Shown here piece after piece: positions 342 to 5,308 of a stretch of DNA of 5,349 nucleotides (the first letter of the stretch is position 1; each line of letters opens with the position of its first letter). The DNA is taken from positions 1-5,349 of the forward strand of contig JAJRDC010000024.1 of the NCBI GenBank assembly GCA_028678635.1, in the 5' to 3' direction. Under the pieces are notes generated by a model that was not told where the DNA came from, made no database searches, and worked only from the letters and a program-made list of their open reading frames with translations. The DNA comes from Methanomicrobiales archaeon (GTDB lineage: Archaea > Halobacteriota > Methanomicrobia > Methanomicrobiales > JACTUA01). The position numbers and the translations under genes are program-made.

Positions 342-602
342 TCCCTCCCCCCATGAGGATATCTCGCCAGTCCGGGTAGCGGGAAAGAGAGATCACCGGT
401 TCCCGGAACACCGGCGGGGGGAGCCTACGCGGCGGGGGGCGGAGCCTCGGCGGAGCCCCCGAGAGCATCCCAGTAATACACTCACGCATGACACCGCCAT
501 GCATCGATGAATGAATACTTCCGGATGCCAGCGGAAGATGGATCCGGTTGCCCGGACGCTTCCAGAAAAAAGATGCATGGGGAAGGTGCATTCTACAGAG
601 GG

Positions 603-1073
603 ATGGCGTTCGTCTGCGCCCGGTGCGGGAGCTGCTGCAGGTACCTGGGGGACTACCTGGTGATCGAGCGGGAGACGGCCCCGTTCGAGTTTGACTGCTG
701 TGCGGTATCCACCGGGACGGAATTCCGGGCCAGGATCGACGACGACAAGCGGGACCTTTTCCTGGACCGGAGTTTCCCCGCGGCACATCCCGATGACTGT
801 CCCTTCCTCCGGCCGGACGGCGAGCACGTGGTCTGTACCATCCATGAAACCCGCCCCTCGCAGTGCCGAAAATACCGGTGCGTGATCCTGCGGATCTCCC
901 GGTCCGGGGGAGGGGAGATCGGCCGCGTTCACGGCACCTTCGGACTTTTTTCTGACGATCCCGATCTCCGGGTGGCGTGGGACGAGGCGCTGCGGGTGGT
1001 TCCCCTCGCGGCGCCGGATGCAGAGGAGCAGCTGCAGCGGTTCCTGGAAAAACGGGGATTCCGCGTCAGGTGA
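603..1073 (+). CDS. YkgJ-family Cys-cluster protein (putative zinc/iron-binding)
   Basis: This 156-aa soluble protein carries the Cys pattern of the YkgJ/UPF0153 family. The N-terminal knuckle is CARCGSCC (C5, C8, C11, C12). It is followed by C32-C33, then CPFL (C66), C78-x2-H81, RP (84-85), C88 and C93 in CRKYRC. Family members are thought to chelate a metal or an Fe-S cluster, but their biochemical role is not established. The start at 603 places the first CxxC five residues in, as is usual for the family; it has AGAGGG directly before it. Upstream in-frame ATGs at 507, 525 and 573 would add up to 32 residues that look unlike protein. An A-rich stretch at about 566-573 might serve as box A. 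The gene converges on cbiM with only 24 nt between the stop codons. Its substrate is unknown; proximity to a metal transporter is suggestive, but the genes are on opposite strands. Confidence 0.85.
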   Translation: MAFVCARCGSCCRYLGDYLVIERETAPFEFDCCAVSTGTEFRARIDDDKRDLFLDRSFPAAHPDDCPFLRPDGEHVVCTIHETRPSQCRKYRCVILRISRSGGGEIGRVHGTFGLFSDDPDLRVAWDEALRVVPLAAPDAEEQLQRFLEKRGFRVR

Positions 1074-1097: not shown

Positions 1098-1748
1098 TCA
1101 GGGTCCGGTCTCCCCCAGGAGTGCGGGCCGGGCCCGGGCTATGAACGCGACCATGAGTGCCGTCACCATGGCCTCGACCACCGCCACGACCATGTTCACG
1201 AGGACCACGAGGGAGAGGCCTGCAAGGAGCGACGAGCCCTCCTGGCTGACGCCCTGGATACCGGAGACCATGATGATCCCAACCATCGCGGCATTGCCCA
1301 CGGCAAGGGCCGCGAAGGTGGCGATCCCTGCCCGTACCCCGGGGGAGGTCCCGGCACGTCGCAGGCCGGTGAAAAGGAGCGCTGCCACCGCCACCTCTGC
1401 CATGTTCACCAGGGTATTGGCACCGATCATCCCCCAGCCGCCATGACCGAGGCCGGCCGAGAGAAGGTTCACGAGAAAGACGATGATCCCGCCGATGACC
1501 GGTCCTGCCAGGATCCCGATGAGCGGTGTCAGGTTCAGGTGGATCCCGCCGAAGAGGGGGAGCTCGATCTGGAAGAACGCGAACGCTGCCGCGGTGCAGA
1601 GAGCGGCCACCGTGATCTCCCGGGACGGGAGTCTTTCGGCCCTCCTGAGCAGGAGGAGGCAGGCCAGGAGCAGGACCAGTGCCACTGCCCACCAGAGGAG
1701 GGTGAAGGAAAGAGGGAAGGCCCCGTCCTGGAGGTGGATGTGGGCCAT
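1098..1748 (-). CDS. cbiM: CbiM/NikM-type S-component of a cobalt/nickel ECF transporter
   Basis: This 216-aa integral membrane protein has about six or seven hydrophobic segments (roughly 13-35, 45-63, 74-97, 108-127, 138-162, 173-203). It is the substrate-specific component that captures Co2+ or Ni2+ for uptake with CbiQ and CbiO. Family marks are the N-terminal MAHIHLQDG, GGIHLNLTPLIGILAGPVIGG (68-87) with H70, and the block GHGGWGMIGANTLVNMAE (101-118). In canonical members the N-terminus is MHIxDG, and the amino terminus, His2 and a loop His bind the metal. Here an Ala is inserted between Met and His and a second His follows (H3, H5); H70 is the likely loop ligand. The ATG at 1748 has GGTGA 3 nt upstream and a GGAGG-containing stretch further up. 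It is the last gene of the operon, 76 nt after cbiO. No CbiN/NikN gene is present. Family is certain; whether the metal is Co or Ni is not. Confidence 0.93.
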   Translation of the reverse strand: MAHIHLQDGAFPLSFTLLWWAVALVLLLACLLLLRRAERLPSREITVAALCTAAAFAFFQIELPLFGGIHLNLTPLIGILAGPVIGGIIVFLVNLLSAGLGHGGWGMIGANTLVNMAEVAVAALLFTGLRRAGTSPGVRAGIATFAALAVGNAAMVGIIMVSGIQGVSQEGSSLLAGLSLVVLVNMVVAVVEAMVTALMVAFIARARPALLGETGP

Positions 1749-1813: not shown

Positions 1814-1838
1814 TCATGTTGGCATCACCCCAACTTTT
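1814..1838. promoter_or_regulatory. Candidate second metalloregulator site at the cbiO-cbiM junction
   Basis: CAACTTTT (1831-1838) is identical to the right arm of the palindrome at 4069-4093. GTTG lies exactly 9 nt before it (1818-1821), as in that palindrome. Across both 8-nt arms, 13 of 16 positions match. The site spans the cbiO stop codon and lies 66-90 nt upstream of the cbiM ATG. Part of the sequence is constrained by the last codons of cbiO (Lys-Lys-Leu-Gly-stop), so chance cannot be excluded. No clear box A was found between it and cbiM. Confidence 0.35.
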
Positions 1839-2757
1839 TCCCGGCCGGGGGGGTTTCCCCCTCCCGGGAGAAGACGGGTAACCGGCTGATCTCCTCAAGT
1901 GTCAGCGGACGGTCCGTGGTCTCGATCCCGTACCTCTCGCAGAGATCGCGGAAGAACTGCACGGGCGCCGGTTCCAGGAGCCCAGCCTCCCTGAGGAGAT
2001 CCCGGTTGTAGAAGATCTCCCGCGGATTCCCGTCCGCGATGAGGGATCCCCCCTTGACCAGGCAGACCCGGTCGGCCAGCCGGGATGCCAGGTCAAGGTC
2101 GTGGGTGGCGAGGACCACGCTCTTCCCCCGGCGATCCCGGAGATCCCGGATGATCCCCTCGATGATGGCACCGTGGACCGGGTCCAGGTCTGACGTGGGC
2201 TCGTCAAAGGCAATGATCAGGGGATCCATGGCCAGGATCCCGGCGATGGCCACCAGCCGTTTCTGCCCGCCGCTCAGGTACGCGGGCATCTTCGTTTCCA
2301 GGTCGGAGGCTCCCACCGCTGCCAGGGCATCCCGGGCCCTGCGGGCTGCCTGGTCCGGCGGGAGGCCCAGGTTCAGGGGCCCGAACATCACGTCATCCAG
2401 GACGGTGGGGGCAAAGAGCTGGTCGTCGGACCGCTGGAAGACCACCCCGACGAGGCGCCAGAGCTCCGGGCCCTCCTTCGCCCCGGTCTCCTTCCCGAGA
2501 ACCGTGACCCTGCCGGAAGAGGGCGTGAGGAGGCCGTTCAGATGCTCGATGAGGGTGGATTTGCCGGCGCCGTTCGGTCCGCAGAGCGCGATGATCTCCC
2601 CCTCGTAGACCCGGAAGCACAGCTCATGGATGCCCCTGGTGCCATCGGGGTAGACGTGGCTGGCACAGTCCACGTGGAGCAGTTCCCCGCGCTCCGGCCG
2701 GGCCGGGGGACAGTGCGGGATGCCCTCTCCGGGTCCCCCCGGTACGGATCCGGTCAT
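1825..2757 (-). CDS. cbiO: CbiO-type ATPase of the cobalt/nickel ECF transporter
   Basis: This 310-aa cytoplasmic ABC ATPase powers metal uptake through CbiQ and CbiM. All nucleotide-binding motifs are intact: Walker A GPNGAGKST (60-68), Q-loop Gln at 108 in VVFQRSDDQLF, signature LSGGQ (161-165), Walker B LIIAFDEPTSDLD (180-192) with catalytic E186, and switch His219 in ATHD. The FQxxDDQLF stretch is typical of the CbiO/EcfA group. After the ATPase core, about 70 residues form the C-terminal extension common in CbiO proteins. About 25 N-terminal residues rich in Pro and Gly precede the first beta strand. The ATG at 2757 is preferred because it overlaps the cbiQ stop as ATGA and has GGGGAGG about 8 nt upstream, pointing to translational coupling. 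A longer in-frame start at 2808 would lie well inside cbiQ. There is one ATPase gene, so a CbiO homodimer is expected. Confidence 0.95.
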   Translation of the reverse strand: MTGSVPGGPGEGIPHCPPARPERGELLHVDCASHVYPDGTRGIHELCFRVYEGEIIALCGPNGAGKSTLIEHLNGLLTPSSGRVTVLGKETGAKEGPELWRLVGVVFQRSDDQLFAPTVLDDVMFGPLNLGLPPDQAARRARDALAAVGASDLETKMPAYLSGGQKRLVAIAGILAMDPLIIAFDEPTSDLDPVHGAIIEGIIRDLRDRRGKSVVLATHDLDLASRLADRVCLVKGGSLIADGNPREIFYNRDLLREAGLLEPAPVQFFRDLCERYGIETTDRPLTLEEISRLPVFSREGETPPAGKKLG

Positions 2758-3572
2758 GGCCCTGTCCTCCCCAGGGTGACGGCAAGGAGAAGGATCCCGA
2801 ATGCCCATGCGCCCATGAGGACCAGGGCATCGCGGGTCCCCGGCCGTCTCAGCCGTGTTCCCGTGGAGAGCGACCCGGTGTACCCCCGGCTCTCCATGGC
2901 CTTCCCGATCCGCTCTGCACGGTCATAGGACCGGAGGAAGACGAGGGCCCCGGCATCGGCAAAGATCCGGGTCTGCCGTGCCGCGCCGGAGAGGAGGCTG
3001 CCCCCCCGGGACCAGAGGGCCTTCTGCATCGATCGGACCATGCCAAGGGTGATGAAGATGAACCGGTAGGCCAGGAGGAGGATCTGGTCGGCAGGATAGG
3101 GGAGGAGCGCATCGATAAGCGCGGCGAGATCCGCGTACCGTGTGGAGGCGAGGACCGCCAGGGTGGCGGTGAAGGAGGCAAGGGCCCTGAGAAGAAGGGA
3201 GACGGCCAGGGAGACACCCTGGTCGGTGAGGGTGAGGGTGAACCCCCCCAGCGGGATCACAAGGATCGGTGTACCGGGTTCACCCCAGATGAAGAGGAGG
3301 ACCAGGGAGAGGACCGCGAGGGCGGGGAGGAGGGACCAGGCCAGGAGCTGCCGGAGTGAGAGCCCTGCCGAGAGGGCGAACGCCAGGGTGACCAGGTACA
3401 GGAGGGCGAGGAGGGGGGAAGCGGGCATGACGATGACCAGCACCACGACCTCGGCGAGAAGGAGCACCCTGGTCCACGGCGAAAGGCGCGAGAGGAAGGA
3501 GGTGTGGTGCTCGGCCGTCCAGGTGATGAGATCCGGGTCCGGCAGGTGGTCGCCGGTCCACGACCTGCTCAC
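2754..3572 (-). CDS. cbiQ: CbiQ/EcfT-type transmembrane coupling protein of the cobalt/nickel ECF transporter
   Basis: This 272-aa membrane protein connects the CbiO ATPases to the CbiM S-component. Hydrophobic segments lie at about 36-50, 52-70, 75-97, 118-144, 162-180 and 246-267. Between the last two is a cytoplasmic helical region carrying two SRG tripeptides, S188-R189-G190 in KALWSRGG and S228-R229-G230 in AMESRGYTG. These match the paired xRG coupling motifs of EcfT proteins that dock into the ATPase grooves. The start is GTG at 3572, preceded by GGGGGAGGGGG about 5 nt upstream. It follows the regulator gene after 37 nt and overlaps cbiO by 4 nt. An alternative ATG lies only deep inside the protein, so the GTG start is favoured. 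Confidence 0.92.
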   Translation of the reverse strand: MSRSWTGDHLPDPDLITWTAEHHTSFLSRLSPWTRVLLLAEVVVLVIVMPASPLLALLYLVTLAFALSAGLSLRQLLAWSLLPALAVLSLVLLFIWGEPGTPILVIPLGGFTLTLTDQGVSLAVSLLLRALASFTATLAVLASTRYADLAALIDALLPYPADQILLLAYRFIFITLGMVRSMQKALWSRGGSLLSGAARQTRIFADAGALVFLRSYDRAERIGKAMESRGYTGSLSTGTRLRRPGTRDALVLMGAWAFGILLLAVTLGRTGP

Positions 3573-3609: not shown

Positions 3610-4041
3610 TCATTCCCCCTCCGGGCAGCAGTCGTGGTCGCGGGAGATCTCGCCGCAGACGCCCATCACCGGGTGTCCCATGGAGGCACAGATCCGGTCC
3701 ACCGCGTCCCGGGATACATAATCCTCGAACCGGGATGCCTCCCTGCAGGCATCGTCAGGAGTGAACCCGTAATGGGAGAGAAGCAGACCCAGGATCCGGT
3801 GCCTGCGGAGCAGGAACCGTGCGTACCTGATCCCCTCCCCGGTCAGTTCCACCCCGCCGTAAGGCCGGTGGGAGAGGTAGCCCCGGGCGGTCAGGTCTGC
3901 GATGGACTTTGTCACCGTGGAAGGGTCCACCCGGAACTCATCCGAGAGTTCTCCAACCTTCGCGTGGCCGCCCCGTTTCAGGAGCGAGATCAGGTACCGG
4001 GACTTGGCCGGGGGGAGCTCCAGGCCGTCAATCTCCTGCAT
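3610..4041 (-). CDS. DtxR/MntR-like metal-dependent transcriptional regulator, probable sensor for the Co/Ni transporter operon
   Basis: This 143-aa protein has an N-terminal winged helix (about 8-72; recognition helix in DEFRVDPSTVTKSIADLTARGYL, wing GGVELTGEG). A DtxR-type dimerisation and metal-binding domain follows (RRHRILGLLLSHYG 79-92, EASRFEDYVSRDAVDRI 101-117, GHPVMGVCGE 122-131). There is no C-terminal SH3-like domain. Compared with DtxR, the His of RRHR (H81) and one Glu (E106) are kept, but the Cys and His of the CxxEH motif are replaced by Ser103 and Asp107, and no Met or Asp ligand is apparent near the N-terminus. The C-terminus is rich in Cys and His (C118, H123, C129, H136, C138, C139), so a different coordination set is likely. 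The ATG at 4041 fits the family start and lies 29 nt from a box A, predicting a leaderless mRNA. First gene of the cbiQOM unit, which implies autoregulation. The ligand assignment rests on alignment by eye. Confidence 0.82.
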   Translation of the reverse strand: MQEIDGLELPPAKSRYLISLLKRGGHAKVGELSDEFRVDPSTVTKSIADLTARGYLSHRPYGGVELTGEGIRYARFLLRRHRILGLLLSHYGFTPDDACREASRFEDYVSRDAVDRICASMGHPVMGVCGEISRDHDCCPEGE

Positions 4042-4065
4042 GCAGGGGTATCGGCACGCCGGCCA

Positions 4066-4074
4066 GATAAAAGT
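4066..4074 (-). promoter_or_regulatory. Candidate box A of the regulator-cbiQOM operon
   Basis: The minus strand reads ACTTTTATC, centred about 29 nt upstream of the ATG at 4041. The predicted transcription start is thus next to the start codon. Six bases of it (4069-4074) lie within the left arm of the palindrome at 4069-4093, so a protein bound there should block TBP. Confidence 0.6.
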
Positions 4075-4093
4075 TGCCCCATAGCCAACTTTT
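4069..4093. promoter_or_regulatory. Perfect 8-bp palindrome, probable operator of the DtxR-like regulator
   Basis: AAAAGTTG (4069-4076) and CAACTTTT (4086-4093) are exact reverse complements separated by 9 nt. The 25-bp span is typical for a site bound by DtxR-type dimers. It lies in the 113-nt gap between the divergent regulator operon and the 173-aa gene, and overlaps the box A of the former. Repression of the operon at high metal is the natural reading. Whether it also controls the plus-strand gene is open; it lies about 62 nt before that ATG. Confidence 0.6.
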
Positions 4094-4154
4094 TGCTCCC
4101 CGGGGGAACGATAGGTATTCATGGGCCGGCGTGGATGTACCGGGGGAGTGGCCC

Positions 4155-4676
4155 ATGGACGATATCGAGAAGGGATTTGATCAGCTCCTGGAGATGGTGG
4201 AGGAGATGAACCGCAAGAATATTCCGCTCCTCGGCGAGGTGAGGGAGAAGGCGGCAGCGCTCCTCGCAAAGATGGGGAAGACCACGGTGCCGGTGGTTCA
4301 GCGGATAGGGATGACCATGGTGGACCGGGCCAAACTGGACGGAAAGGGGGAGCCCTACGATGCCCAGTACCACCCCCGGAAAATGATCGTCCTGGGGAAG
4401 TCCGAGCCCGCTCCCTACCGCCCCGACGATCCCGGGAAGAAGGTGACGGACCAGTTCTGCGTCCTCTCCGAGGATGGGAACTTCTATGAGATCATGTACA
4501 GCACCGACGGGATGTTCCTGGACTCGTACTTAAATCCCCTCACGCCGGAGCAGGTGCTGGACATCTACGGTCTGGAGGTCATGTTCATGCTCTACCGGGC
4601 CATGAGGGACTACCTGGAGGACCAGAAGGACCTGGTGGATGCCCTGGGTCGGGTGCTTGACTACATCAAGACGTGA
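4155..4676 (+). CDS. Conserved-looking protein of unknown function, 173 aa, divergent from the metal-transport operon
   Basis: I do not recognise this protein. It appears soluble, without signal peptide or membrane helix. The first 60 residues are charged and helical (MDDIEKGFDQLLEMVEEMNR, then EVREKAAALLAKMG). A central part contains several Pro, Tyr and Asp residues (67-100), followed by a likely beta hairpin, FCVLSEDGNFYEIMYSTDGMF (101-121). The C-terminus is a long amphipathic helix (about 131-172, EQVLDIYGLEVMFMLYRAMRDYL). It has a single Cys (C102). The ATG at 4155 has GGGGGAG about 6 nt upstream; extension to an earlier ATG at 4074 would run through the operator palindrome and is rejected. 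Base composition and the clean reading frame support a real gene. A weak box A may lie around 4109-4119 (GATAGGTATTC). The shared control region suggests, but does not show, a link to metal supply. Confidence 0.8.
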   Translation: MDDIEKGFDQLLEMVEEMNRKNIPLLGEVREKAAALLAKMGKTTVPVVQRIGMTMVDRAKLDGKGEPYDAQYHPRKMIVLGKSEPAPYRPDDPGKKVTDQFCVLSEDGNFYEIMYSTDGMFLDSYLNPLTPEQVLDIYGLEVMFMLYRAMRDYLEDQKDLVDALGRVLDYIKT

Positions 4677-5234: not shown

Positions 5235-5308
5235 TGGGCCCGGTGCGGTTCGAACGCACGACCTCCCGGTTATCAGCCGGGTGCACCACCAGGCTATGCT
5301 ACGGGCCC
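5235..5308 (-). tRNA. tRNA-Ile, anticodon GAU
   Basis: The 74-nt sequence folds completely as a cloverleaf. The acceptor stem is GGGCCCG/CGGGCCC (7 bp). The D-stem is GCAU/GUGC with a G-U closing pair, the anticodon stem CCCGG/CCGGG with loop CTGATAA, the variable loop AGGTC, and the T-arm GTGCG-TTCGAAC-CGCAC. The anticodon GAT occupies 5274-5272, so it reads AUU/AUC isoleucine codons. The discriminator base is A at 5235, and CCA is not encoded (TATT follows), as is common in archaea. No intron is present. The small membrane protein gene begins 29 nt downstream on the same strand. Confidence 0.97.

What the first reader, a model, noticed from the sequence alone, without database searches (positions are those of the whole stretch)
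4069..4093. Perfect palindrome over the box A of a metalloregulator-transporter operon
AAAAGTTG-N9-CAACTTTT is an exact 8-bp inverted repeat, A/T-rich at its ends, in an otherwise GC-rich window. It covers six bases of the likely TATA element of the DtxR-like gene and sits in a divergent control region. It is a concrete candidate operator for an archaeal cobalt/nickel regulator and might also control the unknown plus-strand gene.
Basis: partly seen in the sequence, partly recalled or inferred. Interest (0 to 1): 0.72.

Follow-up and report, generated by a model that had tools for sequence, protein, structure and literature searches.

The report
Conserved operator of archaeal zinc-type regulator
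A short DNA palindrome in a methane-making archaeon is very probably the docking site of a metal-sensing repressor, and comparison with many related genomes suggests that the repressor and the "cobalt-type" importer it controls handle zinc rather than cobalt or nickel.

Summary
The palindrome AAAAGTTG-N9-CAACTTTT is exactly where stated (4069-4093) and is not chance. Sites of the form AAAnTTTGG-N7-CCAAAnTTT lie about 52-90 bp upstream of related DtxR-like regulators in Methanomicrobiales and Methanosarcinales. A matrix trained only on 51 loci without cbiQ finds two sites in the window: this one and an unreported one at 1814-1838, upstream of cbiM; a cbiM site recurs in 17 of 18 related loci.

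The operator idea is supported; the cobalt/nickel assignment probably is not. In relatives the same regulator and motif stand before znuACB-type genes, and Haas et al. 2009 predicted a zinc role for such a regulator, ZntR. Of 62 genomes examined, strong ZnuA occurs in 0 of 21 with the cbiQ arrangement and 39 of 41 others. The linked CbiM is a divergent extra paralogue starting MAHIHL, not MHIM/MHIP. Best reading: a ZntR-type operator pair controlling a candidate zinc ECF importer. Binding, repression and the metal are inferred, not measured. Control of the plus-strand gene is not supported.

The parts
4069..4093 (.). operator 1: palindrome at the promoter of the regulator-cbiQ-cbiO transcript
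   Evidence: exact match and shuffles; matrix score 16.6 with a matrix that never saw the window
1814..1838 (.). operator 2: second site, 65 bp before the cbiM ATG, overlapping the end of cbiO
   Evidence: 3 mismatches to operator 1; matrix score 18.2; counterpart upstream of cbiM in 17 of 18 related loci
4065..4072 (-). TATA-like TTTTATCT of the regulator gene, overlapping the edge of operator 1 (inferred)
   Evidence: sequence; TTTTAT kept in the window and L001-L003; position in other loci
3610..4041 (-). DtxR-like metalloregulator, 143 aa, ZntR-type by neighbourhood and motif
   Evidence: PF01325 and PF02742 above cut-off; model mean pLDDT 85.1; nearest solved fold DR2539, TM 0.79
2754..3572 (-). 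cbiQ, ECF T component
   Evidence: PF02361, 103.6 bits
1825..2757 (-). cbiO, ECF ATPase; start taken at the in-frame ATG 2757 that overlaps the cbiQ stop (the open frame begins at 2808)
   Evidence: PF00005; open frame; start is my reading
1098..1748 (-). cbiM-like S component beginning MAHIHLQDG; candidate zinc type
   Evidence: PF01891, 114.8 bits; NCBIfam best 61.4 against a cut-off of 205; N-terminus
4155..4676 (+). divergent 173-aa protein of unknown function, probably not part of the circuit
   Evidence: no Pfam or NCBIfam match; unlinked copies without the site
4103..4129 (+). block conserved in four close loci, perhaps the divergent gene's own promoter (inferred)
   Evidence: alignment of the window with L001-L003

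Best explanation
The palindrome is the operator of the DtxR-like repressor encoded beside it, which belongs with the group that Haas et al. named ZntR. When metal (most likely Zn2+) is sufficient, the metal-loaded dimer sits on 4069-4093, covers the edge of the TATA box and keeps the archaeal initiation factors off the regulator-cbiQ-cbiO promoter; it also sits on 1814-1838 and controls cbiM separately. When zinc runs short it leaves and the CbiMQO importer is made. Shown: the two sites, their conservation, the shared regulator, the alternation with znuACB. Inferred: binding, repression, a separate cbiM promoter, zinc.
For: A matrix trained on 51 loci without cbiQ finds only the two sites above 8 in the window, 21 of 22 cbiQ-type regulator sites and 17 of 18 cbiM sites at 12 or more, against 3 of 2059 control stretches. 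Sites precede znuA in Methanosarcina loci. Where cbiM has left the regulator (G001) or cbiQOM lies apart from it (G168) the genes still carry sites. Strong ZnuA in 0 of 21 cbiQ-type genomes and 39 of 41 others. Arrangement changes several times on the regulator tree. ZntR prediction. The ZnuA-like protein's best solved match is a zinc-uptake protein, 244 bits, against 92 for the best manganese one.
Against: No binding or expression data. The strict motif is not more frequent than its reversed control over 150 genomes (25 against 28). NCBIfam scores zinc and manganese models almost equally for the ZnuA-like proteins, all below cut-off. Only 1 of 4 Methanosarcina genomes shows clear sites at a COG0523 gene. 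L063 has no cbiM site and L012 a poor regulator site; 7 of 81 upstream regions do not reach the shuffle level. Assemblies are incomplete. The published motif could not be read.
Confidence: 0.7

Rival explanations
1. Same repressor and operator, but the metal is cobalt or nickel and CbiMQO is an ordinary Co/Ni importer.
For: The transporter genes fall in the CbiM, CbiQ and CbiO families, annotated as cobalt transport.
Against: Same regulator and motif before znuACB-type genes; 19 of 21 cbiQ-type genomes have at least two other, higher-scoring CbiM matches of 150 bits or more; altered N-terminus; no cobalamin riboswitch at gathering score in the window.
Confidence: 0.1
2. Same repressor and operator, but the metal is manganese or iron, as for the best-known DtxR/MntR members.
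For: Nearest solved relatives are MntR and DR2539, manganese repressors; ZnuA-like proteins score nearly as well with a manganese model.
Against: Several MntR ligand positions are not kept; zinc-uptake protein is the clear best solved match of the substrate-binding protein; published zinc prediction.
Confidence: 0.15
3. The palindrome is a chance inverted repeat or has another use, such as a hairpin in RNA, and does not bind the regulator.
For: A single 8-bp palindrome can arise by chance; no binding has been shown.
Against: 0 of 200 shuffles; conserved place and arms with a variable middle in close loci; recurs before regulator, cbiM and znuA, also when these are unlinked.
Confidence: 0.03

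Closest known systems
ZntR (MA0022) and its predicted zinc regulon in Methanosarcina (Haas et al. 2009, PMC2770081, passages read)
   Same: DtxR-like regulator beside and predicted to control znuABC; a COG0523 gene among predicted targets; in my loci the same motif precedes znuA and, in G168, a COG0523 gene
   Different: Here the target is an ECF importer (cbiQOM) with a second operator at cbiM. The published sites and logo were not readable and MA0022 itself was not compared.
CbiMNQO/NikMNQO cobalt and nickel ECF importers
   Same: CbiM, CbiQ and CbiO families
   Different: CbiM begins MAHIHL instead of MHIM/MHIP and scores below all curated NCBIfam cut-offs shown; controlled by the same regulator type as znuACB
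MntR/DR2539 manganese repressors (DtxR superfamily)
   Same: Same fold and two-domain Pfam architecture
   Different: Several metal-ligand positions changed, extra conserved Cys and His; operator sequence TTTGG-N7-CCAAA

Membership tests
ZntR-type archaeal zinc regulon | DtxR-like regulator | tested here: met
   Pfam PF01325 and PF02742 above cut-off
ZntR-type archaeal zinc regulon | regulator adjacent to znuABC | tested here: not met
   In the window it is beside cbiQOM; related regulators are beside znuACB-type genes in L022 and L049
ZntR-type archaeal zinc regulon | shared binding motif at regulator and importer genes | tested here: inconclusive
   One motif found by me covers both arrangements, but the published motif is in a supplement I could not open
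ZntR-type archaeal zinc regulon | COG0523 gene under the same motif | tested here: inconclusive
   Clear sites at one gene in G168, none clear in the other 3 genomes tried; not tested for the window, whose genome is not held
ZntR-type archaeal zinc regulon | responds to zinc | not testable with these tools
   needs binding or expression assays
Co/Ni ECF importer (CbiMNQO/NikMNQO) | CbiM, CbiQ and CbiO families | tested here: met
   PF01891, PF02361 and PF00005 above cut-off
Co/Ni ECF importer (CbiMNQO/NikMNQO) | CbiM beginning Met-His, part of the metal site (recalled; structure paper not held) | tested here: not met
   begins MAHIHLQDG; alignment puts three extra residues before the shared His
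Co/Ni ECF importer (CbiMNQO/NikMNQO) | curated cobalt CbiM score | tested here: not met
   best 61.4 bits against a cut-off of 205
Co/Ni ECF importer (CbiMNQO/NikMNQO) | small N component (CbiN/NikN) | not tested
   No profile search for CbiN was made; no further open frame was named in the operon from the list
MntR manganese repressor | metal ligands D8, E11, H77, E99, E102, H103 (recalled) | tested here: not met
   By the gapless alignment only the H77 and E102 positions are constant in 81 rows; D8 is R/K in nearly all, E99 mostly Ser, H103 mostly Ser/Ala, E11 acidic in 60 of 81 but Arg in the window

The most novel reading that the evidence does not exclude
The regulator-linked CbiMQO is a zinc-specific energy-coupling-factor importer, with a remodelled AHIH N-terminal metal site, that has repeatedly taken the place of ZnuABC in methanogens while keeping the same ZntR-type repressor and operator.
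Probability: 0.58. Interest if true: 0.68.

Novelty: new variant of a known kind. Interest (0 to 1): 0.52.

Why it matters
CbiM-family proteins are routinely annotated as cobalt/nickel permeases (sources' names). If this reading holds, an easily recognised subset beginning AHIHLxDG is mis-annotated, and ECF transport of zinc becomes directly testable. It would also give archaeal zinc control, predicted in 2009 as an unpublished observation, a defined operator, a two-site arrangement and a clear case of an importer exchanged under a constant regulator. I saw no report of a zinc ECF importer in the open-access library (searches, listings only), which lacks most subscription papers.

Tried and rejected
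Searching the window's own genome failed, none is held. The strict motif as a genome-wide regulon finder was rejected: 25 sites in 23 of 150 genomes against 28 reversed-pattern matches in 25 genomes. 14 of the 25 sites lie at regulator, znuA or cbiM (the second site of G072 is placed at cbiM by distance only); of the other 11, 10 lie inside an open frame of 60 aa or more and one (L086) between two genes, and I recognised no metal gene beside them (no profile search). A role for the plus-strand gene was rejected. A cobalamin riboswitch was looked for at gathering score; the only RNA family match is the tRNA. COG0523-type genes (PF02492) in 4 Methanosarcina genomes: clear sites upstream of one gene in G168 (L171), weak or stray ones elsewhere. 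No solved structure matches the window CbiM by sequence at E up to 1. A G001 site near 313.9 kb lies inside a long open frame. The stretch of G005 with a weak ZnuA match was fetched but not analysed.

Full report
Observation. The window holds AAAAGTTG-CCCCATAGC-CAACTTTT at 4069-4093, a perfect 8-bp inverted repeat. Up to three mismatches to its 16 fixed letters gives two matches in the window and none in 200 shuffles. The second, 1814-1838, was not in the finding. On the minus strand lie a DtxR-like regulator (4041-3610), CbiQ, CbiO and CbiM; on the plus strand a 173-aa protein with no Pfam or NCBIfam match.

Conservation. A scan of one genome per species with a profile of the regulator gave 97 relatives, of which the best 80 were kept. 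An iterated matrix on the stretch upstream of the regulator in these 80 loci plus the window converged on AAAnTTTGG-N7-CCAAAnTTT; 74 of 81 exceed the 99% level of letter-shuffled stretches. That matrix scores its own training set, so I trained another on 51 loci that do not have cbiQ beside the regulator. In the whole window it finds two sites above 8: the palindrome (16.6) and 1814-1838 (18.2). It finds sites of at least 12 at 21 of 22 cbiQ-type regulators (L012 scores 7.2) and upstream of cbiM in 17 of 18 loci (L063 fails), against 3 of 2059 control stretches of 150 bp from the same loci. In the window and L001-L003 the arms are kept, one end base of L001 apart, while the bases between them vary.

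Two partners of one regulator. Besides cbiQOM, related regulators stand before znuA-znuC-znuB-type genes, seen in L022 and L049; in most other loci without cbiQ only a distant ABC-ATPase match lies at a similar distance, and some show none. L022, L008 and L014 have two sites 40 bp apart downstream of the regulator. On a tree of 81 regulators the two labels (cbiQ or other) need 7 changes, at least 4 forced by well supported branches, against 20 with shuffled labels; the alignment is short and some branches are long. So the importer seems to have been exchanged more than once.

Alternation. Of the 80 loci's genomes I examined 62 (12); 18 were not examined. A ZnuA match of 190 bits or more is in 0 of 21 cbiQ-type genomes (two have weak matches of 58 and 72 bits) and in 39 of 41 others (missing in G164 and G185). 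A CbiM match in the band of 105-140 bits is in 19 of the 21, with a contig-end fragment in G188 and none in G195, and in 1 of the 41 (G168). 19 of the 21 also have at least two CbiM matches of 150 bits or more (not G183 and G186). The banding is by score; the MAHIHL start was seen directly in seven of these loci (L135-L139; L140 and L141). Assemblies are incomplete, and often the ZnuA counted is presumably the regulator's neighbour; the informative facts are its absence from cbiQ-type genomes and the near absence of the divergent CbiM from the rest.

Sites that follow displaced genes. In G001 the regulator-cbiQ-cbiO locus (L060) has no cbiM match; a divergent CbiM lies elsewhere on the chromosome with a site of score 22.6 ending 75 bp before its ATG. 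In G168, a Methanosarcina whose regulator locus (L021) has sites at the regulator and downstream of it, a separate cbiQOM cluster has a site upstream of cbiQ (24.3) and a close pair before cbiM (19.2, 21.5), and a COG0523-type gene has sites of 14.6, 22.3 and 19.6 some 225-437 bp upstream (L171). The L140 and L141 scores use the matrix.

Which metal. Haas et al. 2009 (PMC2770081, passages) give, as an unpublished observation, a small group of DtxR-like repressors in Methanosarcina, ZntR (MA0022), predicted to regulate znuABC and a COG0523 gene. I did not compare with MA0022 and could not read the supplement, so the link rests on neighbourhood and motif. The ZnuA-like protein of L022 matches a solved zinc-uptake protein at 244 bits and the best manganese-named one at 92; NCBIfam, below cut-offs, scores zinc and manganese models almost equally (150.6 and 147.3). 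The window-type CbiM begins (M)AHIHLxDG in 120 of the 120 listed relatives (best 120 of 1056). The comparison set was picked by the motif [MVL]HI[MP][ED][GAS]F, found in 23 of 24 stretches with high-scoring CbiM matches tried (not in L118; L133 and L135 left out), so it shows the usual start but is not an unbiased count; that MHIM marks cobalt and MHIP nickel types is recalled. In the regulator (numbered without the first Met) H80, C98, E105, C117, H122 and C128 are the same in all 81 rows whichever gene follows; the loci were found by patterns that contain the surroundings of H80, C98 and E105, so only C117, H122 and C128 are free of that bias. One shared metal fits. I put zinc at about 0.7, manganese or iron at 0.15, cobalt or nickel at 0.1.

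Mechanism. Inferred: a metal-loaded dimer binds 4069-4093, overlapping the TATA-like element, and blocks initiation; the second site would do likewise for cbiM. A separate cbiM promoter is not shown, and I found no convincing TATA box there. The divergent gene is probably outside the circuit: found in 21 of 25 genomes, beside the regulator in 7, and 14 of 14 unlinked copies lack a site.

Literature. Nine library searches (listings) showed no zinc ECF importer and no experimental study of this regulator among the papers listed. Passages of PMC2667541, PMC2770081 and PMC7689651 were read; no paper was read whole.

Noticed in passing
L014 5929-6545: Methanosarcina sp. Ant1 keeps the regulator and two tandem sites downstream of it, but no znuA follows and the genome has no ZnuA match: apparently orphan operators.
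   Followed up: partly
window 4069-4093; L001, L002, L003: In all four close loci the site reads GTTGG-N7-GCAAC on the regulator's strand: one half-site has its inner base flipped, a shared asymmetry that the second site at cbiM lacks in the window. Unexplained.
   Followed up: no
window 4155-4676 (+): A 173-aa protein of unknown family, one match in each of 21 of 25 genomes tried, mostly away from the regulator.
   Followed up: partly
L171 1058-1294: Three operator-like sites (14.6, 22.3, 19.6) upstream of a COG0523-type GTPase gene in G168, in line with the predicted ZntR link to COG0523.
   Followed up: partly
window 507-1073 (+): CxxCxxCC-domain protein (PF03692), convergent with cbiM and found at the same place in L001-L003.
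   Followed up: no
window 5235-5308 (-): tRNA-Ile with anticodon GAT.
   Followed up: no
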